Source: a bacterium
GTDB lineage: Bacteria; Krumholzibacteriota; Krumholzibacteriia; LZORAL124-64-63
NCBI GenBank assembly: GCA_020049465.1
Contig: JAIFKS010000009.1
Span: forward strand, 1 to 56,675
Length of the DNA: 56,675 bases
Reading direction: 5' to 3'
Of this stretch, positions 3,757 to 56,675 are shown one piece after another. A model generated the notes under the pieces. That model ran no database searches. It had not been told where the DNA came from and worked only from the letters and a program-made list of their open reading frames with translations. A program made the position numbers and the translations under genes. Within the stretch, counting starts at the first letter, position 1. Every line of letters begins with the position of its first letter.

Positions 3757-5057
3757 CCTCGGGGCTGCCGTTCCCGCGAGCGCGTGCCCGGCGCGTGCTC
3801 GCGGCGGCCGCCCTGCTGTGTCTGCTGCCGGCCTGTTCAGACGAGTCGTCGCCGGAAGATCCGGTCGTGCTGGTCGAAATCGTCGCCGAGGATTCGGGGC
3901 TGGCCCTGCCGGGACTGAAGGTTGTGCTCCTGGATGCGAACACGAACGCGCCACTGTCAGGTCCGGCGGTCAGCGATGCGTCCGGGCGGTGTCTGCTGGG
4001 TCCGGTGGCCGGCGGACGCCCGCGGTTGGTCGTCTTCGGGGGACCGCTCTGGGCCGTTCACCACCAACCCGACTGGTACGGCACCCTGCTCACTGCGGGG
4101 GGGCGGCCGATCGGTTTCGCCGCGCCGGCGACGCCGAATCGCGTGACGATGCGTCCGCGTCGGCGGCCCGGCACGGAGCCCAGGTTTTCGGGCCGGGTGG
4201 TCGATGCCGTCGACGGCCGTCCGCTCGGGCAGGCCTTTGTGTCCCTGTCGCCGTGGCCGACCGGCTACGGCGGCGGCGCCGAGACCAGCGACGACGTGAC
4301 CGGCCCTGACGGCGTCTTCACGGTGTACGACATTCCCGTCGCGCTGGATCGGGACACCGGCATCGGTTACCAGGTCCTGCCGCTGGTCGTCAGCCGCGAC
4401 GGATATCGCACGATCCGCTGGACGTACGATCCTCCCGGCGGGCTGGACTACACGGACGTGGCGGGGCTCGAAATCCCCTTGACGCCCCTGGGACCGGACG
4501 ACAGCGGACGACTATCCGGCCGCGTGGAGCGCGATGGTCTGCCACTGGCCGATCTGCTGGTGGGGCTCGTCGCGGCGCCGACGGCCAAGGGCGCCGTCGG
4601 AGTGGTGGGGCAGGTGGCGCGGACCGACGTCGCGGGCCGCTTCGTTTTCGATCGCCTGGCGGCGGGCGCCTATGTGACGCACCCGGGATTCCTGGCGGGT
4701 GACGGCGCCTGGTTCGGCGCCGCCGCCGCGCCGCCGGTGATCGTCGATGCCGTCACTCCGGCGGACGCGGGCGTCCTGCGCGTGCTGCACGAGATCCGGC
4801 CTGCGCGCGCCAACCCTTCACGTCTGGCGGCGGCGGACACGCTGGTGACCTTCCACTGGAGCGCCGTGGCGGGCGCCGCGCGCTATGTGTGGTTCCTTGA
4901 TGGCGACGCCCTGGCTGAATCCGCGGTCGAGAGCGTGACGGTCACGCTGCCGGCGCTGGCGCCCGGGCTTCATCGCTGGCAGGTGGCGGCTCTGGACGCC
5001 GGCGGTGACGCGGTGGGTTATCTGCAGAACGAGGCCTGGTTCCGCCGGGATCCCTGA
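3753..5057 (+). CDS. Lipoprotein with carboxypeptidase-regulatory-like (Ig-type) domains
   Basis: A 434-residue protein starting GTG inside the previous stop. The signal peptide is Arg-rich, then hydrophobic, with lipobox LLPAC giving a lipidated Cys at residue 28 followed by an acidic linker. Three or so beta-sandwich repeats resemble carboxypeptidase-regulatory-like domains (GLALPGLKVVLLDANTNAPL, SGRVVDAVDGRPLGQAFVSL, SGRVERDGLPLADLLVGLV). The C-terminal ~90 residues look like a fibronectin III-type module (VTFHWSAVAGAARYVWFLDG). It probably sits on the outer membrane; ligand unknown. The gene converges on ackA with only 17 bases between stops. Confidence 0.7.
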   Translation: MTSGLPFPRARARRVLAAAALLCLLPACSDESSPEDPVVLVEIVAEDSGLALPGLKVVLLDANTNAPLSGPAVSDASGRCLLGPVAGGRPRLVVFGGPLWAVHHQPDWYGTLLTAGGRPIGFAAPATPNRVTMRPRRRPGTEPRFSGRVVDAVDGRPLGQAFVSLSPWPTGYGGGAETSDDVTGPDGVFTVYDIPVALDRDTGIGYQVLPLVVSRDGYRTIRWTYDPPGGLDYTDVAGLEIPLTPLGPDDSGRLSGRVERDGLPLADLLVGLVAAPTAKGAVGVVGQVARTDVAGRFVFDRLAAGAYVTHPGFLAGDGAWFGAAAAPPVIVDAVTPADAGVLRVLHEIRPARANPSRLAAADTLVTFHWSAVAGAARYVWFLDGDALAESAVESVTVTLPALAPGLHRWQVAALDAGGDAVGYLQNEAWFRRDP

Positions 5058-44035: not shown

Positions 44036-45136
44036 TCACACCGCGTATTTCAGCTCATGCCGCCGCTCAACCGCCAAAACCCGCGTGCTGACCGCCCTTC
44101 GGTAGTATTCCCGCCACCTCTCAGGCAGCCGGATCCGACTAACGAACAATCGCCGCTCCAGAAGCTCAGCCACATCGACCCGGTGGTCCATCATTCCCCT
44201 GGCTTCGGCCGGCGTCGGGCTGCCCCGTGCCTTTTCCCGCCGACCCTTCATGTAGTTCCGCCACACCAGGAACACCGCCAGCCGCTCCGCACTGGCCTGC
44301 CGACGCTTCGACCACGCGATCGTCTCCCGCTTGTGGTTCGCGCTGCTGTGCCGCACCAACAGGTCCGTCAGGTTGATGGGGAACAACGGGTTGCCCGCGT
44401 CCCGCCGTTCCTTGCTCGAGGTCACCAGATGGATGATCTCGCACGGCAGCTTCCTCAGCACCCGCGGATACGTCTTGTGGTCGTCGCTCAGCACCGTCAC
44501 CCGCGCTTGACCGCCGGTGACCACTTCCATCAGGTGCAGAACATCCTTGAACACCGCCTTGGGATCCGCCTTGCCGTGCTTGGCCTCGAGCCGCTCCCGT
44601 TTGCGCCTCTGGGCCCGGGTCATGGTGCCTGACCGGCGGACCTCGCTGTCGGTGAAGTAAATCAGGAAGTCGGTGTCGCGCTCGACGGCCAGGTGGTGAT
44701 GGAAAGGGTGGTACTGCGAGTACTCGAACGTGACGAATCCGTCGATGACGATGGCGGATGCGGGGTTGGCGGACTTCATCTGCTCGGTGTGGTAGAGCAG
44801 GCAGTGCCGACCCAGGCGGGCGAGCTGGCGATCGACCGTCGACGGGGCGACGTGCAGATCACGGGCGATCTGGCGGTTGGCCATGCCGCCGGTGGTTTTG
44901 GTGGGCAACTGGGGCAGGATGTCGGGGCGCTTGAGCCAGTAGGTGGGCGAGAAGGTCTGGGTGCTGAACGAGCGGGGGCAGTGTTTGCATTTGAACCGCT
45001 GGATACGCTTTTCCTGGGACTGACTCCAGAAGGTGCCAATGCCCTTGTAGCGCCAACCTTCGGTTAACTGCTGATGGTACAGGCAGTCCGGGTTGGGGCA
45101 GTGGGGTGGAACGAAGAAAGGGCTGTTGGTGTCCAT
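44036..45136 (-). CDS. IS1-like DDE transposase
   Basis: A 366-residue transposase. The N-terminal zinc ribbon pairs CPNPDC with FKCKHCPRSFS, as in IS1-type InsA. Next comes a helix-turn-helix (GGMANRQIARDLHVAPSTVDRQLARLG). The catalytic core has IDGF (first Asp), LSDDHK (second Asp) and NHKRETIAWSKR (putative Glu). The last segment with KRETIAWSKR and a downstream RNYMK resembles the IS1 C-terminus. The frame is intact, so it may be active. The ATG is buried in a perfect hairpin (45135-45151). The family call is by pattern, not search. Confidence 0.8.
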   Translation of the reverse strand: MDTNSPFFVPPHCPNPDCLYHQQLTEGWRYKGIGTFWSQSQEKRIQRFKCKHCPRSFSTQTFSPTYWLKRPDILPQLPTKTTGGMANRQIARDLHVAPSTVDRQLARLGRHCLLYHTEQMKSANPASAIVIDGFVTFEYSQYHPFHHHLAVERDTDFLIYFTDSEVRRSGTMTRAQRRKRERLEAKHGKADPKAVFKDVLHLMEVVTGGQARVTVLSDDHKTYPRVLRKLPCEIIHLVTSSKERRDAGNPLFPINLTDLLVRHSSANHKRETIAWSKRRQASAERLAVFLVWRNYMKGRREKARGSPTPAEARGMMDHRVDVAELLERRLFVSRIRLPERWREYYRRAVSTRVLAVERRHELKYAV

Positions 45137-45185: not shown

Positions 45186-46358
45186 TCAGGGTTGCATGGG
45201 CAATGGGAGATCCGGGGTTACGCCGTGGCACGCCAGGCACACCATCCCCCGATCATGCCCCTCGCCCTGCCCATGGCACTTGCGGCACAACTGCCCCTGA
45301 CCGGCATCGTTGAAGGGATTGGGCAGCGGGTATGACCCCGAAACGAGACCGTCATCAGCCAGCCGATAGACACGGGAATCCCAGCGACCTGCCGCAGGCG
45401 CCGATGAGGCGTGCGCGCGGTGGCAGCTCAGACAATGGATGCGGTCGGCCGCTCCGGCGCCGGTTGTCGAAGTGGTCGTATTCAGGATGCCTTCGATGGG
45501 TACCTGCGGCAGATATGCGGTGGCGAAGGTGCCGCCCTGCGGATTCGCGTCCCCTTCGTACATGTTGTAGCGACGCTTCTGGCCGCTGTCCAGGATGCTT
45601 TCCACCGGGTGCTCAAAGAGCGCCTCGCCGCTGTCCTGATGGTACAGGCCATGGCAATTGGCGCACCACGTTGAAACACCGGACAGGTAGGCGGTGTGCG
45701 ACGTTGCCGATTCACGCACGGTTGCGTCGCTGATGTCCAGCCCGAGAGCCTCCGGAGCCGGGAAATAGAATGGCATCTGGCCGCTGGCTTCGGATCCGGG
45801 GCCCCGCAACATGCGGAACGAGGAATTGCCGTGGGGGTCGTGGCAGCTGGTGCAGCCAAGCTCGTGCGACGGGAAGATGCCGCCGGGCGCACGATCCCAG
45901 CGTGCGTCCGCGGTCGTCCCGCGCGACAGCGAAACGATGCTGTGCCCGGCGGCCTGGCCGCTGATGGGCTGCGTCCGGCCGTCGGCGGCGTCGTTGAGAT
46001 TGTCCTCGAGCAGGAAGACGAAATTGCCGCCGCCCAGTTCGCGTGGCGGCGTTCGGGGATCCAGCCCGAACACACCGGTTTCGCCGTGGCACAGGAGGCA
46101 CACGTCGGTGGCGCTGGCGGCCAGCAGAAGAGGTCTGGTTCCGTCGAGGGCGATCGCGCCGCCGTCGCCATCGTGCGTGATGTGACACTGGGAACAGGAT
46201 CCCACACCGCCGCGATGGAAGCCGGCTGCCTGCACGGACAGCGCCGGAAAGACGAGAACCGACGCCAGCGCCAGAGCGACCGCGAGGGGGCGCCCGGCCC
46301 GTCGACGGGAGCCGTCGAACGGCAGAGTATGGGTGGGGGGACCGGAAAATGCAGCCAC
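45186..46358 (-). CDS. OmcS-like 7-heme c-type cytochrome (second paralogue)
   Basis: A 390-residue exported cytochrome with a GTG start, signal peptide (about 24-45, ending VQAAG) and seven CxxCH sites: CSQCH, CLLCH, CTSCH, CANCH, CLSCH, CRKCH, CLACH. The first six fall in the same order and surroundings as in the 6-heme neighbour and Geobacter OmcS: FHRGGVGSCSQCHITH, CTSCHDPHG, WCANCHGLYH, CLSCHRAHAS. The seventh, in a C-terminal extension of about 20 residues (GMVCLACHGVT), is not in OmcS. It may be the OmcT counterpart, a filament cap or a linker. It has its own extended -10 promoter. GAGGTGG lies eight bases ahead of the GTG. Confidence 0.88.
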   Translation of the reverse strand: MAAFSGPPTHTLPFDGSRRRAGRPLAVALALASVLVFPALSVQAAGFHRGGVGSCSQCHITHDGDGGAIALDGTRPLLLAASATDVCLLCHGETGVFGLDPRTPPRELGGGNFVFLLEDNLNDAADGRTQPISGQAAGHSIVSLSRGTTADARWDRAPGGIFPSHELGCTSCHDPHGNSSFRMLRGPGSEASGQMPFYFPAPEALGLDISDATVRESATSHTAYLSGVSTWCANCHGLYHQDSGEALFEHPVESILDSGQKRRYNMYEGDANPQGGTFATAYLPQVPIEGILNTTTSTTGAGAADRIHCLSCHRAHASSAPAAGRWDSRVYRLADDGLVSGSYPLPNPFNDAGQGQLCRKCHGQGEGHDRGMVCLACHGVTPDLPLPMQP

Positions 46359-46401
46359 TGCTCAACCACCTCGAACATCACAAACCGTTTGCAACAGGTG
46401 G

Positions 46402-46410
46402 ATTCTAACA
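46402..46410 (-). promoter_or_regulatory. Extended -10 promoter element of the 7-heme cytochrome gene
   Basis: On the minus strand TGTTAGAAT (TGnTAGAAT) lies 44 bases before the GTG at 46358 and downstream of the terminator that closes the 6-heme gene. There is no good -35 at 17 bases. Confidence 0.45.
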
Positions 46411-46442
46411 CGTTCAAGCGGAAATTGGCACCGCCGAATATC

Positions 46443-46478
46443 GGAAGAAGGGCCCCGCGGCGCTAGGTCGCGGGGCCC
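46443..46478 (-). terminator. Terminator after the OmcS-like gene
   Basis: Perfect 10-bp stem GGGCCCCGCG / CGCGGGGCCC (46450-46459, 46469-46478) with a 9-base loop. On the minus strand it is followed by TTCTTCC. It lies 84 bases after the 6-heme cytochrome stop, so it would separate that transcript from the 7-heme gene. Confidence 0.6.
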
Positions 46479-46561
46479 GACTCAGGAATCACCGTCTTTG
46501 CGGTCCGTCCGATCACGGGGCGGGCACCGCCCAAGGATCGAAACCTGTCGTCCGCGTCGTC

Positions 46562-47662
46562 CTACAGGCCGTAGGCCTCGTCGTCGTAGTCCTTGACGTG
46601 GCACTTGTTGCACAGCGAGCGCTGGTTCTGAACCAGCGTGTAGTTGTAGTACTTCCGGTCGACGTCGGTCTGCAGGAAGTTGATGTCCGTCACTGAGGGG
46701 TGCGAGTCGGCCAGGAAGGTCTCGCTCATGTCCCAGCGGGCGGAGTCGGCGAACGGCGAGGCGTGCGCACGGTGGCAGCTCAGGCACATGACCTGGTCGA
46801 CACCGGTGGGGCCGGTCGTGTAGTTCGTCGTGCTGACCGTCGCCAGGTCGGCATTGACAGCTTCGAAGGGCACGAGGCCCAGGTACGAGGTGGCCGCGCT
46901 GCCGCCGGTCAGGTTGTCCGAGCTCACATACGCGTTGTACTTGCCGGCGATCTCCGAGCCCATCGCGCGGGTCGGGTGCACGAAGTTGGTCGTGTTGTTG
47001 TCATGCAGGTCGGTGTGGCAGTTCGCGCACCATTCGCTCATGCCGCTCTTGTAGACGGTGTGCTTCAGGTCGGTCTCGCCGCCGGACGTGGTGTACGTCG
47101 TGCGGGAGTTGCCCTTGGCGATCGGCGCGTCGGCCGTGAAGTTGTAGCGGGAGCCGCTGTAGTTGGGGCCCTGGTCGTTGCCATACAGCAGGCGGAAGTT
47201 CTGGTTGCCGTGGGGGTCGTGGCAGCTGGTGCAGCCCAGACGAGCGCTCAGGAAGTCGCCGCCGGGAGCCGCGGACAGCACGCCGTCCTGGGCGATGCCG
47301 TAGGCGGGGGAGATCACGTTGTGGCCGTGGCTGTCGCCGGTGCTGACGACAGTCGAGCCGTGTCCGGTCCAGCTGAACGTGCGGGTCACCCAGTAGAAGT
47401 CGCCGCCGGGGCCGAAGCCCGAGCCCTGACGGTGCTGGCCGTAGTTGGCATGGCACTGCAGGCAGGTGTCCGAGGGGGTGCCGTTGTTCAGCAGGTAGGC
47501 GTTGCCGTTCGGATGATCGGCGTCGACGAGGGCGCCGTCCTGGCTGTTGTGCATGGTGTGGCAGCCAGCGCATTCGGCGACGCCGCCGTCATGGAAGGCC
47601 AGGACCGAGCTGGCCGACAGGCCGAGCGCGAGAACCAGAGTCAGCTTGATGAACGTCTTCAC
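46562..47662 (-). CDS. omcS: OmcS-like 6-heme cytochrome (probable nanowire subunit)
   Basis: A 366-residue secreted cytochrome starting GTG with GGAGG seven bases ahead. The signal peptide is cleaved at LA|FHDGG (mature from residue 23). Six CxxCH sites: CAGCH, CLQCH, CTSCH, CANCH, CLSCH, CNKCH. Beyond the heme motifs it follows Geobacter OmcS, as I recall that sequence: GGVAECAGCHTMHNS at the mature N-terminus, PGGDF, CTSCHDPHG, GMSEWCANCHTDLH, SYLGLVPFE, CLSCHRAHAS, LCNKCHVKD. The mature His16 (CHTMH), which in OmcS filaments ligates a heme of the next subunit, is conserved. It follows an NHL-repeat gene and precedes a 7-heme paralogue, resembling the omcS/omcT locus. Confidence 0.92.
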   Translation of the reverse strand: MKTFIKLTLVLALGLSASSVLAFHDGGVAECAGCHTMHNSQDGALVDADHPNGNAYLLNNGTPSDTCLQCHANYGQHRQGSGFGPGGDFYWVTRTFSWTGHGSTVVSTGDSHGHNVISPAYGIAQDGVLSAAPGGDFLSARLGCTSCHDPHGNQNFRLLYGNDQGPNYSGSRYNFTADAPIAKGNSRTTYTTSGGETDLKHTVYKSGMSEWCANCHTDLHDNNTTNFVHPTRAMGSEIAGKYNAYVSSDNLTGGSAATSYLGLVPFEAVNADLATVSTTNYTTGPTGVDQVMCLSCHRAHASPFADSARWDMSETFLADSHPSVTDINFLQTDVDRKYYNYTLVQNQRSLCNKCHVKDYDDEAYGL

Positions 47663-47843
47663 GATTGAGCCTCCAGTTACGTGTTTCCAGCTTCTGCGCC
47701 GCGGCGCAGTCTCTCCTGCGGATCTTGTCTTCCGGCCTGCGGCCGCAGTGCCTGCAGTGCCCGTGCGATCGCTTTCGACCTCCCCGTGTCCGTACGGTCC
47801 CTGACTGCGCGATTCCTGATCGCGGCCCGGCGAAACCGGGCTT

Positions 47844-48818
47844 CTATTCATCCGCCCCGTCGGCCTGGACGCTGAATACCTGCACACGTCCCCGGAAACC
47901 CTGCGCCACGTAGAAATGGCCCGCGCCATCGGTGGCCAGGGAGACCGGGTGGTAGAAACGGCCCGGCGCATCGCCGATCGAGCCGTATTCGGTGATGAAC
48001 CGGTTCGTCGCATCGAAAACCATGACCTTGTGGCGCATGCGGTCGAGCACCAGCAGGCTGCCCTGCGGACCTGCCGCAACCGCCACCGGGAACACCATGC
48101 GGCCGGCGGCCGTGCCGAACCGGCCGAAGGACTCCGTCAACGTGCCGTCTTCGGCCACGACCAGGACGCGGTGGAGTTCGCCGCCGGGGATGCGGAAGGT
48201 GCCGTCGGCCATCTGGACCGGGCGGCCGAAGGCCTTGTCGCGGGTCTCTTCGTCGCCCAGGGTGCGGGCCCACAGCAGGGCGCCGGTGGCGGCATCGTGC
48301 TTGGCCAGCAGGGCGGCGGCGGAATCGAGGGTCAGATAGTGGCCGTCGCGGCAGATCAGCAGATGGTCGGGGTTCCATTCCGCGGCAGCAGGTTCCGGCC
48401 GGAAGCCGTCGGGCTCACCGTAGATGTTCAGCCGGACGATGGTGCCGATGGCCCCGTCGACCATCATCGCGGCGACCAGACGACCCTCGGCGTCGACGGC
48501 GCCATCGTTGGGCAGGGTCAGGCCCGAGAAGCCGCCCGTGCGGAAAGTCTCGATCCCGGCGGCATTGAAGACATGCAGGGAAGCATGCATCGACTCGGTC
48601 ACGCAGATTTCACCGCTGACCGGATCGCAGGTCACCGAAACCGGGTGCAGCTGGCCTTCGCGGCTGCGCGTCAGCTCAAGCCCCCGTTCGTAGCGGATCG
48701 TGAAGCCGGCCTGGGCGCCCGTCGCCAGGCCCGACAGGACGACCGCCACCATGGTTGTTACGAAAACAACACGGTTGCCGAGGTGTCCGGGGCGAGCTGT
48801 CGGGCGAAGAACTGGCAT
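47844..48818 (-). CDS. Exported NHL-repeat beta-propeller protein
   Basis: A ~324-residue exported protein: signal peptide (VVFVTTMVAVVLSGLATGAQA), then six-bladed NHL-type repeats (LHPVSVTCDPVSGEICVTES, FPVAVAAGPQGSLLVLDRMRHKVMVFD, FYHPVSLATDGAGHFYVAQG, each followed by V.VF). I prefer the ATG at 48818 to an in-frame TTG at 48836. It lies directly upstream of the OmcS-like gene and downstream of the strongest promoter in the window. NHL propellers accompany nanowire cytochrome genes elsewhere, perhaps as assembly or anchoring factors; that role is inference. A GCCCGG/CCGGGC hairpin (47825-47841) follows the stop. The rest of the 181-base gap has a CTGCGCCGCGGCGCAG palindrome (47694-47709) but no clear promoter. 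Confidence 0.85.
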   Translation of the reverse strand: MPVLRPTARPGHLGNRVVFVTTMVAVVLSGLATGAQAGFTIRYERGLELTRSREGQLHPVSVTCDPVSGEICVTESMHASLHVFNAAGIETFRTGGFSGLTLPNDGAVDAEGRLVAAMMVDGAIGTIVRLNIYGEPDGFRPEPAAAEWNPDHLLICRDGHYLTLDSAAALLAKHDAATGALLWARTLGDEETRDKAFGRPVQMADGTFRIPGGELHRVLVVAEDGTLTESFGRFGTAAGRMVFPVAVAAGPQGSLLVLDRMRHKVMVFDATNRFITEYGSIGDAPGRFYHPVSLATDGAGHFYVAQGFRGRVQVFSVQADGADE

Positions 48819-48870
48819 TCTGCACGCTTCTATCAAAATTGGCGACGTTTCGGCCGTTCAGGGCGGTTCA

Positions 48871-48889
48871 TTTGTCACCGGGATATCAT
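48871..48889. repeat. 19-base direct repeat, copy 1, overlapping the promoter
   Basis: TTTGTCACCGGGATATCAT matches 49079-49097 at 17 of 19 positions, same orientation, 208 bases apart. This copy covers the -10 and start-site region of the NHL-OmcS promoter, so it could be an operator. Confidence 0.5.
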
Positions 48890-48912
48890 ACCACATGGGT
48901 GGAGGAAGTCAA
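48885..48912 (-). promoter_or_regulatory. Strong promoter of the NHL-OmcS genes
   Basis: On the minus strand TTGACT (48912-48907), 16 bases, TATGAT (48890-48885), with TGG making an extended -10 (TGGTATGAT). Upstream, about 60-100 bases of AT-rich sequence with T and A tracts (GTTTATTTTTTCGCG next to the -35) resemble an UP element. This is the best sigma-70 promoter I see in the window, and it would drive the NHL and OmcS-like genes. Confidence 0.7.
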
Positions 48913-49024
48913 TGAAATCGCGAAAAAATAAACAACGCCTCGCTCGATGTGCATGAAAAACAATATCATTTGTTAAATCGTTGAAAATCATGCGATTGCG
49001 AATGGGGTCGCAGGGGGTACGACA

Positions 49025-49046
49025 ACAGGCCGGTCACCCGGCCTGT
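49025..49046 (-). terminator. Hairpin after the 42-heme gene, possible terminator
   Basis: Perfect 9-bp stem ACAGGCCGG / CCGGCCTGT with loop TCAC. On the minus strand it is followed by TGTCGT, a poor T run. A second hairpin CCGCC / GGCGG (49060-49075), followed on the plus strand by GGTTTTG, lies beside it. Together they probably stop transcripts between the 42-heme gene and the NHL promoter. Confidence 0.45.
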
Positions 49047-49078
49047 CATCATCTTGTCACCGCCCCCTGTGGCGGGGT

Positions 49079-49097
49079 TTTGTCACGGGGATGTCAT
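49079..49097. repeat. 19-base direct repeat, copy 2
   Basis: TTTGTCACGGGGATGTCAT, the partner of 48871-48889. It lies 14 bases past the stop of the 42-heme gene. Between the copies is AT-rich sequence and two hairpins. Confidence 0.5.
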
Positions 49098-49110
49098 GCG
49101 CCGGCTGCGC

Positions 49111-52100
49111 CTACTCCCTCTTCTGGCGCAGCTTGTCGGTGTGGCAGCCGACGCAGAGCTTGCCCTTGGGATCCTCATTGAGGAACCGCACGAACACCGA
49201 ACCATGCGGGTTGTGGCAGCTGGCGCAGACCATTTTCTGTCCGGTGCGCGGATCCAGGGTGTCGGCGCCCATCGGATGGTCCGAGTGGTCGCGGTAGGAG
49301 TGGCAGTCCAGGCAGACTTCGCGCGGTCCGGTCCGGACGCTGTCGGCGCCGGCGGCGGCCTTTTCGACCGACGTCAGGTGCGGGTTGTGGCACACGGTGC
49401 ACTCCCGCTCATCGACCAGCGGGTGCCGGTGGGCGGCCGTTCGGGTCAGATCAGCTTGCGCCTGATGGCAGGTACCGCAGACGGCGACCTGGCGTCGGGG
49501 CAGCAGCGGGGCGAACGGTGAGGTGTGGGCGGCGTGGCAGACCGTGCAGGCCTTCTCACCGGCCAGGGGCGCGTGCAGCGTGCCCAGTTTGAGGTCCTCG
49601 GCCATGCCCAGGTGGCAGCCCAGACACAGCGCCGGCTGGGGCTGCTTGGTGCCGACGGAAGTTCCGGCATGGCAGGCGGCGCAATTGCCGTCGCCGAACG
49701 GAGCGTGCACCTGTTCGTGCGGCAGATTCGGCTTCTTCGCCGCGTGCGGGGCGTGGCAGCCGGCGCAATCGGATTCGGCCACCGGGAAGCCGCGGTGCTT
49801 GGCCGCCAGGCCGGATGTGGCATGGCACTGCACGCACAACTCGCGCGGAGCCTGGCGCAGGCTCATGGCGACCGGACCGCCGTGCGGGTCGTGGCAGCGG
49901 GCGCAATTGCCCGAACGCAGCGGCGCATGCACGACCGGGGACTTCTTGAGCTCCTCGATCTCCTGGTGGCAGCCCGCGCACAGGGCTCCGGGCGTGCTCA
50001 GCAGCAGGTTCGGCTGGTCCGAGGCGTGCGGGCTGTGGCAGGCCTCGCATTTGCCGTCGCGCACCGGCGTGTGCGCCAATTCCGGGAGCGGGGCCAGGGT
50101 GGACAGGTCGTGGCACGCGGCACAGGACTGTCCCGTCGTCGGGGCCGACAACAGGTGGGGGCCGCGGGCGACATGGGGATTGTGGCAGCCGGAACAGTCG
50201 CCCTCGGCGTACGGCGCGTGCACCGTTTTGCCGACCGCGGCGGGGTCGGGCAGGCCGTCATGGCACTGGAAGCACAGGGTCTTCTGGTCGGCCACCGGGG
50301 CGGAGCCCTCATGACAGGTGGCGCATTCGCGGTCTCCGAACGGCGGGTGGGCCTCGGCGACCAGCAGGCCGGGCACGGCGGCGTTGTGGGCCTCGTGGCA
50401 GCCCAGGCAATCCAGCTCCAGGGGATCGCGCCCGAGGTGCGCCGCCGAGAAGCCGGCGCTCTTCTCGTCGTGGCAGGTGAAGCACAGGGCCGGAGCCGGC
50501 TGCCGCAGGAAGCCCACGCCCTGACCGCCGTGCGGCAGGTGGCAGTCCAGGCAGGCGTCGCGGCTGGGCGGGTGCACCGAGACGGCGCCCGCAGGATCGG
50601 CGATGCCTTCGTGGCACAGTCCGCACAGCTTGCCGCTCTCGTGCGTCAGCAGGGACTTCTCCGCCGAACGGTGCGGATCGTGGCAGGCCACGCAGTTGCC
50701 GTCGGCCACAGGCCGGTGTTCGCGCCAGCCGGCGGTCTGCGGCGACGCGATGTCGTGGCAATCGGCGCAGGTGGCCGCGGCGGACTTGCGCAACAGTCCG
50801 TCGACGTCGCCGCCGTGCGGCAGGTGGCAGTCCAGACAGGCACCTTCCGCTGCCGGCGGGTGCAGCGTGCCGCCCTTGGGCTGGACGGACAAATCGGCAT
50901 GGCACTTGGCGCACAGGGCCGCCGGTTCGGCGGTCAGCAGCCCCGCGCGCTCGCCCGCGTGCGGGGTGTGGCAGGCCAGGCAGTCGCCTCGCGAGGCGAC
51001 GACATGCGGGAATGCCGAGGCCAGTTCCAACTGGACCTTGGTATGGCAGCCCAGGCAGAGGGGGCCGAGCGGTTTGCTCAGCAGGGCCTTGCGGCTCGAA
51101 CTGTGGGGCTCATGGCACGCCGTGCACGACTGCTTGACCAGCGGCGCGTGGATCACGGCCGTGCTCGAGGTCGGAATGATGCCGTCGTGGCACGAGGCGC
51201 ACAGGGTGTTGGTGTCGTCCTTCAGCAGTCCCTTGCGGTCGGAACCGTGCGCGGCGTGGCAGGTGGAGCAGGTCCCATCCTCGATCGGGGAATGCCGGAC
51301 CGGCTGCGTGAAAGAGACCTCGTCGTGGCATTCCAGGCACAGCCTGCGTTCGCCGGTGGTCAGCATTGCCTTCTGCGAACTGCCGTGGGGCGCGTGGCAG
51401 GCCGTGCACTCCCGGTCCTCGGCCGGCTGGTGGGCGAACTTCGATTTGCCGGCCGGATCGTCATGGCACTCGATGCACAGGCTGGCCACGGGCTGGCTGA
51501 GCGCCAGCTTGCCGTCGGCGCCCGCCGTGTGGCACGACGCGCAGTCACCGTCGACGACCGGCGAATGCTGCACGGCATGCAGCAACCCCGGCAGCGCCGA
51601 ACTGTGGGGATCGTGGCAAGACACGCAGCCGGTCAACGATTCGTTGCCGTTGTGCGAGCGCGCGAGCTTCTTGGCGTCGGCGTGGCAGCCCACGCACAGC
51701 CCGTCGCCGGCCACCTTCAGCAGTCCGGGATTGGGCGAAGCATGGGGATCGTGGCAGGCGACGCAGCCGTCCTTGGCCAGAGGCCGGTGCACGATCTTGC
51801 GCTGGAACATTCCGGCTTCATGGCAGGCGAAGCAGGCGTCGTCACCGGCGACCGGCAGCAGGCCGGGCTGGCCCGACCCGTGCGCGGCGTGGCAGCCCGC
51901 GCAGCCGACGGTGCGAAGGGGCTCGTGGACGACCTTGTTCTCCAACAGAGCCTTATAGTCCTCGTGACACGTCAGGCACAGATCGCGTCCCGACGCTTTC
52001 AGGACCAGCTTGCCGATCACGCCGTGTCGGCGGTGGCAGCCTTCGCAATCGCCGGTGGCGAACGGCTGGTGGGCATGGCGATCGGGCACCTTGGCCACAT

Positions 52101-52275
52101 CTTCCTTGTGGCAGTCGACGCAGCCCTTGCCCTTGAAGGCGCCGGCGGCCTGCGACGGCCCGGCGCTCAGCGTCAGGGCCAGCGACAGCGTCAGGGCGAC
52201 GGCCAGCGTGTTCGCGACGATCGACGTGCGGCGGTGGTTCTCCGGCACGGGAATGCGGGCGCCATGGCAATCCAC
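49111..52275 (-). CDS. Giant 42-heme c-type cytochrome with doubled-CXXCH repeats
   Basis: A 1054-residue exported protein starting GTG with AGGAGG seven bases ahead. The signal peptide (about 17-44) ends SQA|AGAF. I count 42 CxxCH sites, the first at residue 52 (CVDCH) and the last 10 residues from the C-terminus (CVGCH). They come in about 21 doubled-CXXCH units of about 48 residues, each with LC..CH, then H.P or H.PL, then C..CH.PH and a LL spacer. Extra His residues supply the second heme ligands. There is no catalytic domain, so it should be a long electron wire in the periplasm or at the surface. It is the last gene of the barrel-CsgG-parvulin operon and lies upstream of the OmcS-like genes. 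Confidence 0.93.
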   Translation of the reverse strand: MDCHGARIPVPENHRRTSIVANTLAVALTLSLALTLSAGPSQAAGAFKGKGCVDCHKEDVAKVPDRHAHQPFATGDCEGCHRRHGVIGKLVLKASGRDLCLTCHEDYKALLENKVVHEPLRTVGCAGCHAAHGSGQPGLLPVAGDDACFACHEAGMFQRKIVHRPLAKDGCVACHDPHASPNPGLLKVAGDGLCVGCHADAKKLARSHNGNESLTGCVSCHDPHSSALPGLLHAVQHSPVVDGDCASCHTAGADGKLALSQPVASLCIECHDDPAGKSKFAHQPAEDRECTACHAPHGSSQKAMLTTGERRLCLECHDEVSFTQPVRHSPIEDGTCSTCHAAHGSDRKGLLKDDTNTLCASCHDGIIPTSSTAVIHAPLVKQSCTACHEPHSSSRKALLSKPLGPLCLGCHTKVQLELASAFPHVVASRGDCLACHTPHAGERAGLLTAEPAALCAKCHADLSVQPKGGTLHPPAAEGACLDCHLPHGGDVDGLLRKSAAATCADCHDIASPQTAGWREHRPVADGNCVACHDPHRSAEKSLLTHESGKLCGLCHEGIADPAGAVSVHPPSRDACLDCHLPHGGQGVGFLRQPAPALCFTCHDEKSAGFSAAHLGRDPLELDCLGCHEAHNAAVPGLLVAEAHPPFGDRECATCHEGSAPVADQKTLCFQCHDGLPDPAAVGKTVHAPYAEGDCSGCHNPHVARGPHLLSAPTTGQSCAACHDLSTLAPLPELAHTPVRDGKCEACHSPHASDQPNLLLSTPGALCAGCHQEIEELKKSPVVHAPLRSGNCARCHDPHGGPVAMSLRQAPRELCVQCHATSGLAAKHRGFPVAESDCAGCHAPHAAKKPNLPHEQVHAPFGDGNCAACHAGTSVGTKQPQPALCLGCHLGMAEDLKLGTLHAPLAGEKACTVCHAAHTSPFAPLLPRRQVAVCGTCHQAQADLTRTAAHRHPLVDERECTVCHNPHLTSVEKAAAGADSVRTGPREVCLDCHSYRDHSDHPMGADTLDPRTGQKMVCASCHNPHGSVFVRFLNEDPKGKLCVGCHTDKLRQKRE

Positions 52276-52295
52276 GGTTCTTCCTCCTGTAGCGG

Positions 52296-53678
52296 TCAAC
52301 GGGCGGCCGGTGCGGCCGTCCCGGTCTCGGTCTTGGTCTTGTCTTCGGCCGCGGCGGTTTCGGCCAGGATCCGGGTCACTTCGGCTTCGGCTCCGGGCAG
52401 GATCGTGATCGGCGACTCGACTTCCAGCCGGTCGAGGATCTCCATGAGATGGCCGCGCGTCTGCTCGCGATTCATCAGCGAAAGGATGCGGTCCCGGCAG
52501 GTGTCGAGCGGTTGCGGCTGTGTCTTCTCGATTTCCGTGATCTGCGCGACCACCCAGCCACCCGGCACGCCATAGGGATTGGGGACCTCGCCGACGCTGA
52601 GTTCGCCTCGTTTGAGGCCGATGGCCTCGGGATCGATCCAGTCCGCGGGAAACGGCGAAGCGCCCTTGACCACCCGGGCGTCGTTGGCGGCCAGCCACTT
52701 TGCGGTGGTGCCCTTGAGCAGCTTGATGCGCAGTTCGGCGGCGATCTCCTCGGTGGCGACCTTGAGACTGGCCACCTTGATGCGCGCCGGGGGTGTCACT
52801 TCGGCCGCATTCTCCTTGTAGTAGGCCTTGATCTGGGCCTCGGTCGGCGCGAACTCGACCGTGAGCAGGACGCGCAGTCCTTCCTCGAGCACGGCGTTGC
52901 GTTCCAGCCGCCGGCGCAGCAGTTTCATGCGCGGCGTCTGGTCCATGCGCTGAGCCTTCAACTGCAGGTTGAGAAGGTACTCGGAGAAATACTCGCGCAA
53001 GACCTTGTCCCGGCGCTCGGCCGCGTCCGGCTTGCCGACCAGACCGTGGAATTCGACGAAGCGGAGTTCGCGCGAAAAATCGGCCACCGTCAGCGTCCGG
53101 GTGGGGCTCAGGCGGGCCAGAACGGCTTTGCTCTCGCGCAAACGGGTCTGCTCGGCCGGATCGGCCGAACCGAAATCAAGCGAGCGCAGCAGGGTGGAAT
53201 CGACGCTGGCCCCCCAGGTGCGGGCCAGACGGTCCAGATAGTTCTTCACGGCCAGGCGCCGCTTCTCGTGCACGTCCTTTGCCTCGGCGGGGATCGACAA
53301 CACGACCGAGTCCAGGAGCGCCTTCATGCATTCGTTCCGCACGGATTCGGCAGTCTGGTTGCGCACCGAGAACTCCTGCTCCAGGCCCATCCGGTAACCT
53401 TCCTGGACGATCAGCTGATTCTGCGTCATGCGCTTCAGGACATCGCGCGGCTCGATGGGCTGGGCCGACGCGTTGTCGACGTTGCGGACACGCATGAGCG
53501 CCAGTTCGATCTCCAGATCATTGGTGGTCAGCGTATCGGGGCCGACCAGGGCCAACGGCGTCGGGCGTTGGCCGGCGGGCGCGGTCGCCGCGGCCGCCGC
53601 CGTCGTCAGCAGGGCGCCTGTGGCCAGGAACACGGCCAGGAACAGGACCCGGGAAAGTGCGCGCGTGGTATTCGTCAT
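52296..53678 (-). CDS. Exported parvulin-type peptidyl-prolyl isomerase of the cytochrome locus
   Basis: A 460-residue exported protein with a signal peptide (MTNTTRALSRVLFLAVFLA, cleaved in the Ala-rich run). It has a SurA/PpiC-like helical chaperone region with an LTTNDLEIELALMRV start and a parvulin-like domain at about 300-400 (PPARIKVASLKVATEE, GELSVGEVPNPYGVPGGWVVAQI). The tail is charged and Thr/Ala-rich. It overlaps the upstream gene by ATGA and sits 20 bases before the 42-heme cytochrome gene. A dedicated foldase for cytochrome or barrel proteins is the likely role. Confidence 0.82.
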   Translation of the reverse strand: MTNTTRALSRVLFLAVFLATGALLTTAAAAATAPAGQRPTPLALVGPDTLTTNDLEIELALMRVRNVDNASAQPIEPRDVLKRMTQNQLIVQEGYRMGLEQEFSVRNQTAESVRNECMKALLDSVVLSIPAEAKDVHEKRRLAVKNYLDRLARTWGASVDSTLLRSLDFGSADPAEQTRLRESKAVLARLSPTRTLTVADFSRELRFVEFHGLVGKPDAAERRDKVLREYFSEYLLNLQLKAQRMDQTPRMKLLRRRLERNAVLEEGLRVLLTVEFAPTEAQIKAYYKENAAEVTPPARIKVASLKVATEEIAAELRIKLLKGTTAKWLAANDARVVKGASPFPADWIDPEAIGLKRGELSVGEVPNPYGVPGGWVVAQITEIEKTQPQPLDTCRDRILSLMNREQTRGHLMEILDRLEVESPITILPGAEAEVTRILAETAAAEDKTKTETGTAAPAAR

Positions 53679-54742
53679 GAGGTGGCGTCCTCCAGAATGC
53701 GGTGGAAATCCGGCCACAGTTCCGTGGCGCTTTCGCGAAGTTGGCCGAGCAGTGTCCGTGCTTCCGTCAGGCCGAACCAGCCGGATCCGCGCTCGCCGGA
53801 GGCGCGAAACGACCGCGTGCCCACCACGATTCCCGTGCGCAGATCGACCAGTTGCAACGTCAGAACAAGTTCTTCGGCGGCCCCGCGGCGGTTGGTGGTC
53901 GCTTCGCCGTCCGGCAACTGCCGACTCCGGGGCGCCGCCGAAAAACCGAAGGACACGACTTCGGGAACGATCGCCCAGGGCGTGCCGAATTCGCGGATCA
54001 GCGCCGAGCGCCCGTCGGCATCGAGGCGCCCCAGATCGCGTCCGGCGGCGGCCGCCGCGGCGTTGACCAGCGCCGGATCGACGATCATCCAACGGCCGTC
54101 CTTCAACGCGGCATCCAGGACACAGTTCGTCGCGGCCCGTGTCGCCAACGGGTCCAGTCCCACGCCGCGACCCGGCAGGATGAGCAGCGCCGGCGCCGGA
54201 TCCAGGGGAGTCAGGGCGTTCGGAAAGGCCCGCCGCAGAACGTCGATCAGGATTCGGTGCCAGTCGCTTCCGTCCAGGGCGGCTTCAGCCACGCCCACGG
54301 CCATGACCCGTCCGGTCGCCGCGTCCACGGCATGAAACGAAGCGACGAGCTGGCCGCCGTCGACCGAAAGCGAGAGCGACAGGAGTGTGGGCGCGCCGAG
54401 TTCCTCGCGCACGCCGGCCAGGAATTCCGGGGTCAGGGTGCCGCCGGTGCGGATGCGGTGGCGACGGACGAGGTCTTCGGTCAGCGAGCGGTCGCTGACC
54501 AGGGTTCCGGCGGCGCCGGTCAGCGCGGCCAGCACACCGTGGGCGGCCTGCCGCAGTTCGGCCGCATCCGCCGGCATTTCCGGGATCGGGCCGCCTTCGA
54601 GGTGGAGCACCAGGGCCATGGTGGCCGGCGGCATCGTCTCCACCGAGGCGGCCGGGCTGGGTGCAACGCCGGACAGGACGGAGCCGGCCAGAGCCAGTCC
54701 GGTCAGAATCGCGAGCCGGATCCTGTCTGCCGGCTTCTTCAT
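53675..54742 (-). CDS. Exported protein with two CsgG-like halves
   Basis: A 355-residue exported protein with a signal peptide (IRLAILTGLALAGSVLSGVA). Two similar halves follow: about 60-165 (GTLVSDRSLTEDLVRRHRI, ELGAPTLLSLSLSVDGGQLV, DAATGRVMAVG) and about 195-330 (GRWMIVDPALVNAAAAAAGR, EFGTPWAIVPEVVSFGFS, DLRTGIVVGTRSF). The order (function-of-age strand, helix, exposed strand, D..TG.) is that of CsgG/LpoB-type domains and of the preceding small lipoprotein. It starts on the stop of that gene (TGATG). Function unknown; assembly or secretion of surface cytochromes is a hypothesis. Confidence 0.65.
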   Translation of the reverse strand: MKKPADRIRLAILTGLALAGSVLSGVAPSPAASVETMPPATMALVLHLEGGPIPEMPADAAELRQAAHGVLAALTGAAGTLVSDRSLTEDLVRRHRIRTGGTLTPEFLAGVREELGAPTLLSLSLSVDGGQLVASFHAVDAATGRVMAVGVAEAALDGSDWHRILIDVLRRAFPNALTPLDPAPALLILPGRGVGLDPLATRAATNCVLDAALKDGRWMIVDPALVNAAAAAAGRDLGRLDADGRSALIREFGTPWAIVPEVVSFGFSAAPRSRQLPDGEATTNRRGAAEELVLTLQLVDLRTGIVVGTRSFRASGERGSGWFGLTEARTLLGQLRESATELWPDFHRILEDATS

Positions 54743-55320
54743 CAGAACAGAGTCCCCAGCGCTGCGCGCACATTGGCGCGTGCGACCTCGTAAAGGCTGG
54801 CGCTGCCGCCGCCGAAGAGCTTGCGCATCAGCGAGGCACCATCGGTGCGCGCCTGCGACGACCAGACCGTGCGGCCGGTCTCGGCTTCGTTCAACTGGTA
54901 GTTGACCGTGACGACGTGCGTGGCATCGCGGGACGTGCGCTCCAGGCCGTACTCCTCGACCGTGCCGAAGAAAAGGGCATCCGCTTCCAGCCGCTTCGCC
55001 AGATCGATCACCTGCTGCGGGCTGAGGATCATGTCGGGCGCCAGCTTGAGCTCGGAGACGGCGGCGAGCATTTCGCCGCGGTCGACCACTTCGAGTTCGC
55101 CGGTTTCCAGGATCTCGGTGACGAAGATCGACTGCACCTTCTGGGCCGCGAAGATGTCCTGGGTGAGATTGAAGAAGGGGTAGATGGCCACGCGTCGGAT
55201 GAAGCTGAAGTCGACGTCGTCGCGCAGGAATTCACTCGCGCGGGGGGAACAGCCCCCGGTCAGGGCGAGCGCTCCCGCCAACATCAACACGGCCCACCAT
55301 CGGCATCGCTTGCTCACCAT
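54742..55320 (-). CDS. CsgG/GNA1162-like lipoprotein
   Basis: A 192-residue lipoprotein: signal peptide with lipobox LTGGC (Cys about 24), then a CsgG-like domain (FSFIRRVAIYPFFNLTQD, IFVTEILETGELEVVDRGEM, AKRLEADALFFGTVEEY, DATHVVTVNYQLNEAETGRTVW). CsgG forms the outer-membrane channel for curli; GNA1162/LpoB-like relatives are periplasmic lipoproteins with the same fold. I choose the ATG at 55320 with AGGATCAGGA ahead; the 23 in-frame codons upstream spoil the signal peptide. It follows the barrel gene by 56 bases. Confidence 0.8.
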   Translation of the reverse strand: MVSKRCRWWAVLMLAGALALTGGCSPRASEFLRDDVDFSFIRRVAIYPFFNLTQDIFAAQKVQSIFVTEILETGELEVVDRGEMLAAVSELKLAPDMILSPQQVIDLAKRLEADALFFGTVEEYGLERTSRDATHVVTVNYQLNEAETGRTVWSSQARTDGASLMRKLFGGGSASLYEVARANVRAALGTLF

Positions 55321-55376
55321 GTCCTGATCCTTTCCCGTGGGCCGCCTTGTCGCCGCCCAAACCTGCGAAGCGCCGG

Positions 55377-56675
55377 TCAGAATGTCCAATATCCCCGGAA
55401 CTGGAAGCTCAGGGGCCAGCTGTCACGGCCCGCCAGCCGTTCGAAACTCTTGTCGACACTGCCCGACAGGGTCAACCGGGGCCGCGGCCGCCAGTCGGCG
55501 GTGGCGCCGGCGCCGCGACGCATCTGGTCCGTCCTCGAATCCTGGTAGTCGCTGGCCTGGAAGCTGAGGGCCATGCTGCCACCGGGCAGGGGCGTCCAGG
55601 CCAGACTGTTCCGGATCATCCAGTCGCGCTCGTCGCGCTTCTGGCTGATGACCTGCCCGTTCCAGGTCAGCAGGGGCATGATCTCCCAGTTCGCGTCCGC
55701 CTGGCTCTCGCTGTAGGTCGTGAACCCGACGCCGGCTTCCTGGCTGACCCACCGTTCGGTGCGGCGCAGATCCACGCGCAGGCTCGGCCGCGGGGCGCTC
55801 TGGATCTCCGAAGACAGCACCCACGAGTCGGAATCGCCCGTGCCGAAATCACTCTTGCGCCAGCCACGCGACAGCTTCTGCGAGAACGTCAGCGCCGGCG
55901 CCGCGCGCCAGGTCGCATCGGCGGTGACCGCTTCGGTCCGGTAGCGGGCGTTGTAGTTGTCATCCTCGGTCACCATCCAGGACAGGTTCGCGCCGAGGCG
56001 CCCGGTTCCGCGCCTGGACAGCGACAGCAGGCGGGTGTTCGAGTCGGTGTCCAGGTCGCCGGGCGCGCTTTCGCGATTGGCCTGCAGCTGCCCCGACAGG
56101 AGCCAGCTGTTGCGACGCCAGTCCATGGTAACGGTGTTGTTCGTCCGGTTCAGGCGGCCGTCATCGCCTCCCTGGTCGCGCCGGTCCAGTGATGCGCCGT
56201 AGCGGAATCGCAGCCTGGGGTGCAGCGCGTAGGCGAGTTCCCCGTTCAGCATCCTGTCGCGACCGGAGTTCGGGTTCGGTGCTGAGCGTCGTGGTGAACG
56301 GTTCGAGTTCGGTCACGAACAGATCGCCCATCGTTGGCCCGAGCTTGCGGTTCACGAGCTTCAGACGACGGTGCGTCACTTCGCCGCCGGCAAAACGGAT
56401 TTCCCAGCCCTGGCGCCCGGTTTCCAGTTCGAACCAGGTGGCGGACCACTGCCCCGCCGGCACGGGCAGTCCCCAGTCGAATCCCTCGGCGTCGTCCGAA
56501 AAATAGAGATCCCAGGCCATCAACTGCGGCAGGAAGGTCAGGCGGCGGTCGACGTACAGGTAGGCGGCGCCCAACGACTGCACGGCGCCGAAATCGAGCA
56601 CCAGATTGCGGTAGTCCCCGCCCTGGTCGCGGACCGGGGCCGCGTTGTCGCCCAGGTTGATGACGGTCGGCGTGG
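55377..56675 (-). CDS. Outer-membrane beta-barrel protein, partial and frameshifted
   Basis: The gene enters from the right edge of the window. Its first frame (to about 56275) reads a beta-sandwich-like region (GDYRNLVLDFGAVQSLGAAY, WSATWFELETGRQGWEIRFAGG). After that the frame at 56252-55377 continues as a barrel with alternating strands and C-terminal GYWTF. The frames join smoothly if one G of the GGG run at 56272-56274 is removed: the protein then reads TTTLSTEPNSGRDRMLNGEL. So this is one gene with a +1 frameshift, either a sequencing error or a recent mutation. It heads the operon with the CsgG-like, parvulin and 42-heme genes and may be the outer-membrane conduit. Confidence 0.75.

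What the first reader, a model, noticed from the sequence alone, without database searches (positions are those of the whole stretch)
45186..56675. OmcS-type cytochrome nanowire locus with dedicated assembly genes, apparently outside Geobacter
All on one strand: barrel, CsgG-like lipoprotein, double CsgG-like protein, parvulin, 42-heme cytochrome, NHL propeller, OmcS-like 6-heme, 7-heme paralogue. I recall that the Geobacter omcS/omcT locus also has an NHL-repeat gene and a parvulin gene nearby, so the association looks conserved. Here it is joined to CsgG-like proteins, a barrel and a giant cytochrome, giving candidates for a complete periplasm-to-filament route. The rest of the window does not look like Geobacter.
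Basis: partly seen in the sequence, partly recalled or inferred. Interest (0 to 1): 0.93.

Follow-up and report, generated by a model that had tools for sequence, protein, structure and literature searches.

The report
OmcS nanowire locus with 42-heme feeder
A bacterium far from Geobacter, likely a Krumholzibacteriia, carries a rearranged version of the gene set proposed to build OmcS protein nanowires in Geobacter, with one 42-heme cytochrome where many other bacteria have a 26-heme and a 16-heme protein side by side, and this cytochrome would likely feed electrons to the wire.

Summary
In detail: eight minus-strand genes (OscE-type barrel fragment, OscF lipoprotein, double-domain OscG, parvulin OscH, 42-heme cytochrome, NHL propeller, 6-heme OmcS homologue, 7-heme paralogue) lie at 45186-56675. 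The 6-heme protein matches only OmcS among solved chains below E 1 (E 7e-54) and keeps all 12 ligand-type histidines, including the one aligned with OmcS His16. But the association is not new: the same genes, in the order NHL-omcS-(oscD)-oscE-F-G-H-26heme, stand in 22 of 79 related loci, Geomonas included, and fit the published osc (omcS-companion) operon. The window is a variant: permuted order, no full-length OscD found, OscI and OscJ in one chain. All 10 complete OscI/OscJ pairs examined have 26 + 16 hemes, total 42. OscF/OscG resemble PelC of the Pel export portal; the 42-heme protein resembles MtrA. The host shares a family with a genome titled Candidatus Krumholzibacteriia. Likely mechanism: portal export of OmcS, with the 42-heme chain charging the filament; filament formation and portal function are untested. 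New variant of a known kind; the constant total of 42 hemes is the most novel part.

The parts
55377..56675 (-). OscE-type outer-membrane barrel, C-terminal part only, frame broken near 56250 (ORFs 55377-56252 and 56161-56673)
   Evidence: OscE profile E 7.6e-30 and 4.4e-21, profile positions 397-701 and 284-397 of 702; full-length orthologue L004:127-2352 modelled with 11 + 17 long strands around an insert, pLDDT 84
54742..55320 (-). OscF-type lipoprotein (start placed at 55320; 193 aa; lipobox-like Cys by eye)
   Evidence: OscF profile E 3.4e-74; Pfam LpoB over cut-off, CsgG under it; family profile nearest to PelC 9h80_C E 1.5e-7
53675..54742 (-). OscG-type protein with two CsgG/PelC-like repeats
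   Evidence: hhalign to canonical OscG: probability 98.7, E 1.7e-16, 294 columns; to OscF E 1.6e-4, probability 50; canonical OscG profile hits PelC E 2.3e-14
52296..53678 (-). OscH-type SurA/parvulin prolyl isomerase
   Evidence: Pfam Rotamase_2 E 3.1e-15; OscH profile E 4.6e-123
49111..52275 (-). 42-heme cytochrome = OscI (hemes 1-26) + OscJ (hemes 27-42) in one chain
48885..48912 (-). promoter-like site (TTGACT-16-TATGAT, extended -10) before the NHL gene
   Evidence: 10 of 12 matches; 2 sites in the region against 0.7 (sd 1.1) expected; consensus match only
47844..48836 (-). NHL beta-propeller of the osc type
   Evidence: Pfam NHL E 7.7e-8; osc NHL profile E 1.2e-93
46562..47662 (-). OmcS homologue, 6 hemes
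   Evidence: phmmer to OmcS 6ef8/6nef E 7.1e-54; all 12 ligand-type histidines; tree clade of 4 rows, SH-aLRT 99
45186..46358 (-). OmcS paralogue with a seventh CXXCH at the C-terminus
   Evidence: OmcS E 1.8e-25; extra motif in about 4% of 108 aligned rows

Best explanation
This is a rearranged osc (omcS-companion) cluster in a genome of a likely Krumholzibacteriia family, whose OmcS homologue is predicted to polymerise into an extracellular heme filament that OscH would fold, that an OscE barrel with an OscF/OscG collar would export, and that a single-chain 42-heme OscI-OscJ cytochrome would charge with electrons. Shown here: homology and conserved order of the parts, the six heme motifs plus six further conserved histidines of the OmcS homologue, the 26 + 16 = 42 correspondence, no full-length OscD found, PelC-type sequence similarity of OscF/OscG and MtrA-type similarity of OscI. 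From papers citing Shen et al. 2025 (which I could not read): in G. sulfurreducens OscH is proposed to act in folding, OscE/F/G in secretion and OscD in nanowire morphology. Inferred: that the protein polymerises here, that OscE-F-G form a PelBC-like portal, and that OscIJ is a periplasmic wire reaching the base of the filament; at the OmcS spacing (about 4.8 nm per six hemes) 42 hemes in line would span about 34 nm.
Against: No experiment shows filaments in this phylum. PMC12977616 (passages) warns that sequence models would lack the resolution to detect authentic OmcS wires in other genera and that only OmcS itself is known to form a wire. The window barrel is truncated and frame-broken. The OscE model matches barrels of many kinds, TonB-dependent receptors first, so neither a PelB-like nor an MtrB-like role is shown. 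OscF also resembles LpoB and GNA1162 and OscG GNA1162. Localisation and length of OscIJ were not measured here. The Anaeromyxobacter 16-heme protein pairs with hemes 3-20 in mixed register, and the truncated L043 one with hemes 1-14. The AF2 model carries no hemes.
Confidence: 0.62

Rival explanations
1. OscE and the 42-heme protein form a giant MtrAB-type porin-cytochrome conduit: the MtrA-like cytochrome is threaded through the OscE barrel, and the OmcS homologue is an extracellular acceptor or filament that leaves by another route (for example the pilin-dependent route discussed for Geobacter).
Against: [quoted passage not shown] TonB-dependent receptors rank over MtrB for OscE; the OscE orthologue has no NCBIfam match below E 0.001, the MtrB/PioB model included; an MtrAB conduit does not need a PelC-like collar or an isomerase (inference).
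Confidence: 0.22
2. The genes are an OmcS-family electron-transfer cluster whose cytochromes act as monomers or short oligomers at the surface; no nanowire is made in this lineage.
For: Only G. sulfurreducens OmcS is known to form a wire among its relatives (PMC12977616, passages); the window paralogue has a seventh heme motif at the C-terminal end, which could cap or block a filament end (inference).
Against: The histidine aligned with the inter-subunit ligand is kept in 103 of 108 rows and in both window proteins, without another known need; the osc set is kept with it.
Confidence: 0.14
3. Decaying locus: the broken barrel frame and the flanking transposase mean the cluster is a pseudogene remnant in this genome.
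For: Frame break in OscE; IS1-like transposase next door.
Against: The other seven genes read as uninterrupted frames; the break lies near the end of a MAG contig, where assembly errors gather (inference); OscE of the three same-genus relatives L003-L005 reads through.
Confidence: 0.06

Closest known systems
osc (omcS companion) operon of Geobacter sulfurreducens (omcS, omcT, oscC-oscJ; Shen et al. 2025, known here only through PMC13194489 and PMC12977616)
   Same: NHL, OmcS-type hexaheme, OscE barrel, OscF lipoprotein, OscG, OscH isomerase, 26-heme OscI and a 16-heme OscJ counterpart (the 16 read here from Geomonas), in conserved relative order
   Different: E-F-G-H-cytochrome block precedes NHL-omcS instead of following it; OscI and OscJ are one chain; no full-length OscD found; second OmcS-like gene has 7 hemes; Krumholzibacteriia-type host
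OmcS nanowire cytochrome (PDB 6EF8, 6NEF)
   Same: 6 CXXCH, all 12 ligand-type histidines, homologous over nearly the whole length
   Different: about 344 residues from the aligned mature start against 407; polymerisation unknown
PelC of the Pel polysaccharide export portal (PDB 9H80; 5T10 and 5T11 are further matches)
   Same: OscF and OscG profiles match it best among solved structures
   Different: OscG has two such repeats; the barrel OscE has an F5/8 type C-like insert; the cargo would be a cytochrome
MtrA of the MtrCAB conduit (PDB 6R2Q chain A; name recalled)
   Different: 42 hemes instead of 10 (the 10 is recalled)

Membership tests
OmcS-type filament cytochromes | Homology to OmcS over most of the chain | tested here: met
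   E 7.1e-54, query residues 23-154 and 156-358, in order
OmcS-type filament cytochromes | Six CXXCH and six further ligand histidines, one aligned with the inter-subunit His16 | tested here: met
   All 12 in both window proteins; 101 of 108 family rows
OmcS-type filament cytochromes | Head-to-tail polymer with a continuous heme stack | not testable with these tools
   Needs purified protein or cells and cryo-EM; no heme-bearing modelling here
osc (omcS-companion) cluster | omcS-type gene with NHL gene next to it | tested here: met
osc (omcS-companion) cluster | OscE-OscF-OscG-OscH in this order | tested here: met
   OscE only as a frame-broken fragment
osc (omcS-companion) cluster | 26-heme OscI followed by OscJ | tested here: met
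   Both present, as one chain
osc (omcS-companion) cluster | OscD propeller (accessory: seen in 28 of 45 loci with OscE and OscF) | tested here: not met
   No full-length match in G000 or in the ten genomes of L003-L012; partial matches in 5 of the 11; control genome G016 E 1.2e-158. MAGs are incomplete. Not treated as defining, as 17 of 45 loci lack it in view
osc (omcS-companion) cluster | Gene order NHL-omcS before OscE | tested here: not met
   Permuted: NHL-omcS follow the cytochrome; hence filed as a variant
PelBC-like export portal | PelC-type lipoprotein | tested here: met
   PelC 9h80_C E 1.5e-7 with OscF, 2.3e-14 with OscG; similarity only, ring not shown
PelBC-like export portal | PelB-type barrel with TPR region | tested here: inconclusive
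   OscE is a barrel model that matches many barrels; no TPR was sought
Curli CsgG secretion pore | CsgG domain at the Pfam cut-off | tested here: inconclusive
   OscF 17.2 bits against a cut-off of 20.8
MtrAB porin-cytochrome conduit | MtrA-like cytochrome | tested here: met
MtrAB porin-cytochrome conduit | MtrB-like barrel | tested here: inconclusive
   6r2q_B at rank 10 among unlike barrels; no NCBIfam match of the L004 orthologue, MtrB/PioB model included; the genome search with TIGR03509 rang in no control

The most novel reading that the evidence does not exclude
OscI and OscJ are two halves of one fixed-length wire: a 42-heme, MtrA-like rod, made as one chain here and as 26 + 16 elsewhere, that bridges the periplasm (about 34 nm at OmcS spacing) and docks at a PelBC-like portal to charge OmcS filaments as they leave, with the constant heme total acting as a molecular ruler.
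Probability: 0.3. Interest if true: 0.85.

Novelty: new variant of a known kind. Interest (0 to 1): 0.52.

Why it matters
How OmcS-type filaments are assembled, anchored and fed with electrons is described as open (PMC12307469, section 13). A genome in which OscI and OscJ are one protein, with heme motifs 26 and 27 only 17 residues apart, suggests that in Geobacter the two meet end to end, which can be tested at once in a laboratory strain. The constant total of 42 hemes over distant phyla points to a wire of set length. The PelC relationship of OscF/OscG gives a concrete export model.

Tried and rejected
Rejected: 'new association'. The Geomonas and Anaeromyxobacter clusters hold the same genes. 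Rejected: '42-heme chain confined to one family'. I held this after the 79 loci (8 with 41-42 hemes), but the protein search (a capped candidate list) gives 104 relatives at E 1e-100 or better, of which 67 have exactly 42 motifs; eight that carry a source's name (FCB group, Zixiibacteriota three times, Gemmatimonadaceae, Krumholzibacteria, Latescibacterota, one plain 'bacterium') were counted one by one and all have 42. Their gene neighbourhoods were not seen. In the 67, OscI (L033) pairs with hemes 1-26 in 65 and OscJ (L033) with hemes 27-42 in 52, from heme 18 on in 10, from heme 1 on in 4 and otherwise in 1. Rejected: an OscH-OscI fusion (P0131), whose middle holds a second signal-like segment, so a read-through or frame error is likelier. 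Rejected: inference of MtrA orientation from the 42-233 match, since the repeat could match anywhere. Led nowhere: TIGR03509 in the own genome (no control rang). MtrB and PelB are absent from the 50 VIA rows for OscE, which shows nothing. One search held a wrong-frame row (L005) and was replaced. Motif counts of 41 in L009 and L011 come from a masked stretch and a CXXXCH variant. The 49-motif protein of L074 was left out of the 42-heme count.
Full report
What is there. The window is a complete contig (G000:C44, 56,675 bases) of a 3.92-Mb, 177-contig genome, 93.55% complete. On its minus strand, reading from the contig end inward, lie a barrel fragment, an LpoB/CsgG-type lipoprotein, a double-domain relative, a parvulin, a 42-heme cytochrome, an NHL propeller, a 6-heme OmcS homologue and a 7-heme paralogue. 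The first five are spaced by 56, -1, -4 and 20 bases; NHL, OmcS and the 7-heme gene follow after 274, 181 and 203 bases. Two promoter-like sites, against 0.7 (sd 1.1) expected, stand just before NHL and before the 7-heme gene (consensus matches only). The barrel is cut by the contig end and its two pieces lie in different frames that meet at the same profile position; I describe this and mended nothing.

OmcS. In a search of all solved chains the 6-heme protein hits OmcS at E 7.1e-54 and nothing else below E 1; the 7-heme protein hits OmcS at 1.8e-25, with one further match at 0.69. In an alignment of 108 relatives the six CXXCH are in 98-100% of rows, and six further histidines are conserved in 95-100%, including the one at the position of OmcS His16 (the label His16 and its role as the inter-subunit ligand are recalled, while PMC6584659 passages, state 12 His ligands, one of them, on heme505, from a neighbour). 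The rows are those of the OmcS profile with at least 5 motifs (108 of 111 hits). All 12 are present in 101 of 108 rows and in both window proteins; the His16 position is missing in 5. The tree (quick method, SH-aLRT only) puts the 6-heme protein with L003-L005 (99) inside a 14-row clade (99), and the 7-heme protein in an 8-row clade (97) with a copy that lies downstream of OscJ in L033.

The neighbourhood is the osc cluster. One scan of genome contigs with the OmcS homologue kept the best 79 distinct loci out of 526 confirmed stretches. Profiles seeded from the Nitrospirota cluster L070 were run on all frames of these loci and of the window. In 22 of 79 loci the order NHL-omcS-oscE-oscF-oscG-oscH-25/26heme is complete on one strand, 18 of them with OscD, among them Geomonas (L066, L067) and Anaeromyxobacter (L078); many others are cut by contig ends. 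45 of 79 loci hold OscE and OscF; of these 42 hold NHL, 40 OscG, 39 OscH, 28 OscD, 28 a 24-27-heme and 7 a 40-or-more-heme protein, and no locus of the 79 holds both OscD and the latter. In the window and in 7 of 79 loci (L003-L005, L009-L012) the order is E-F-(G)-H-42heme-NHL-omcS; L006-L008 are truncated but agree. In L009-L011 OscG was seen by tblastn, not by the profile. The names come from papers citing Shen et al. 2025, which is not held: OscH folding, OscE/F/G secretion, OscD morphology, GSU2495 = oscI and GSU2494 = oscJ, both listed as periplasmic (PMC13194489 passages), and the eight-gene block GSU2500-GSU2493 (PMC12977616 passages). The matching of letters to my families rests on order and type: a YVTN propeller gene (GSU3586) numbered close to omcS in strain KN400 (PMC3495685 passages) fits the propeller family called OscD here (Pfam YNCE 4.1e-12), and GSU2495 has 26 motifs (PMC2996986 passages).

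The 42-heme protein is OscI plus OscJ. Aligned to the window protein, 12 of 12 26-heme proteins pair heme by heme with hemes 1-26, and 8 of 8 complete 16-heme proteins with hemes 27-42; the 14-heme piece of L020 and the 13-heme piece of L038 follow the same register, while the 14-heme piece of L043, cut by its locus end, does not, and two separate 20-heme proteins (L016, L017) pair with hemes 1-20. The Geomonas OscJ pairs 16 of 16 in the same register, the Anaeromyxobacter one does not. The register for OscJ is weaker than for OscI, because the repeats resemble one another: score ratios of the N part to the C part are 0.77-0.96 for OscJ, with L043 at 1.02, against 1.93-2.49 for OscI. Of 30 uncut 25-26-motif frames, 29 have 26 motifs and one 25; the 8 complete OscI/OscJ pairs in the loci and the Geomonas and Anaeromyxobacter pairs are all 26 + 16. 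In the single chain, heme motifs 26 and 27 are 17 residues apart, so the junction has no linker. Among 104 further relatives from the protein search, 67 have exactly 42 motifs and 18 have 26. The total of 42 is therefore largely kept whether one or two genes encode it.

Host. The two plus-strand genes beside the cluster are secD and secF (NCBIfam over cut-off). SecD is 77-79% identical to L003-L005, 74% over the best piece to the genomes of L038 (titled Candidatus Krumholzibacteriia) and L006, and 48% over a piece to Geomonas; the SecD tree joins the window with L003-L005 at 100/100. In the phylum tally the OmcS homologue is in 26 of 80 genomes, 12 of 43 genera and 4 of 4 genomes of the own genus. 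The match in G067:C153 falls on the coordinates of L038, so the genome titled Candidatus Krumholzibacteriia is in the own family; by the same reckoning L007, with the same title, is there as well. In L033 and L038 secD and secF-like genes stand directly before NHL-omcS, and in the window and L003-L005 beside the 7-heme gene (transposase between them in the window, L003 and L004; only the window's pair was named by a library), which speaks for inheritance at one site with rearrangement.

OscD. A 30-row OscD profile finds no full-length copy in the window genome and the ten genomes of L003-L012; partial matches of at most 168 of 490 positions occur in five of these 11 (E 1.5e-12 to 3.1e-4), against 1.2e-158 in the control G016. 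The gene before OscE in L003 and L004 is a 7-heme cytochrome; the OscD profile hit nothing in the 11 and 10.4 kb upstream.

Structure. The OscE orthologue of L004 models with pLDDT 84 (pTM 0.66) as 11 long strands, an insert (about 270-440) and 17 strands (strand counts by eye from the printed list); the insert resembles a galactose-binding module (L070 F5_F8_type_C_2 E 9.8e-5, under its cut-off; YeCBM32 E 0.0026). Foldseek and VIA give barrels of many kinds, TonB-dependent receptors first. OscF and OscG profiles are nearest to PelC. The 42-heme model (pLDDT 79.7, pTM 0.57, no hemes) has one Foldseek match below E 0.001, 6r2q_A. That this chain is MtrA, and 6r2q_B MtrB, is recalled; the depositor's molecule name reads otherwise.

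How it likely works. OscH would fold the heme-loaded OmcS homologue; OscF and OscG would form a PelC-like collar under the OscE barrel and guide it out; the filament would grow outside; OscIJ would carry electrons across the periplasm to its base. At 4.8 nm per six hemes (PMC6584659), 42 hemes in line give 33.6 nm, of the order of a periplasm (recalled). None of these functional steps was tested here.

Novelty. OmcS homologues outside Geobacter are in print (PMC10954620 and PMC10553843, passages), and so is the osc operon. In the library I found no paper on the heme total, the single-chain form or this lineage's osc cluster: searches (listings; of PMC9769843, on Krumholzibacteriota, passages were seen, without OmcS). 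None of these searches asked for the heme total by itself, and the key paper and most subscription papers are not held, so this is weak evidence of absence. I file it as a new variant of a known kind.

Noticed in passing
window 44036-45136: IS1-like transposase (NCBIfam transpos_IS1 E 1.8e-6, under its cut-off) between the 7-heme gene and secF; 71% identical copies at the matching place in L003 and L004, in opposite orientations, none matched in L005.
   Followed up: partly
L110:208-1182 and L111:8774-10105: A 7-heme cytochrome (81% identical between the two) stands directly before OscE on the same strand in L003 and L004; the window ends before that place. A 40% relative in L112 points the other way.
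   Followed up: partly
L121, L122, L123, L124, L125 (own genome C73, C148, C168, C91, C57): Other large multiheme frames in the host: 19 motifs; 22 and 20 side by side; 11; 10; and a 5- and a 4-motif pair with a NapC/NirT match.
   Followed up: partly
L008, L009, L010, L012: MAGs titled Latescibacterota, Fibrobacter, Gemmatimonas and Gemmatimonadales all fall in the host's family when coordinates are matched to the phylum search, the first three in one genus: submitter labels look wrong.
   Followed up: partly
L119:1928-3289 and 3339-4640 (Geomonas oryzae): Two more 6-heme OmcS-family genes (profile E 1.9e-129 and 6.3e-150 on these two sequences) lie downstream of the 16-heme OscJ gene.
   Followed up: partly
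G000:C158, G001:C131, G004:C160, G009:C72: Matches to only about positions 19-176 of the OscD profile in four window-type genomes: perhaps a stand-alone N-terminal domain.
   Followed up: no
L074:11439-17585 (Anaeromyxobacter soli): A 49-motif frame next to an OmcS-type gene, without the other osc families in view apart from an NHL gene.
   Followed up: no
L016 and L017: Clusters titled Abyssobacteria and Poribacteria with 26 + 16 hemes, then NHL-omcS twice, 9-heme and 20-heme cytochromes: a third arrangement.
   Followed up: no
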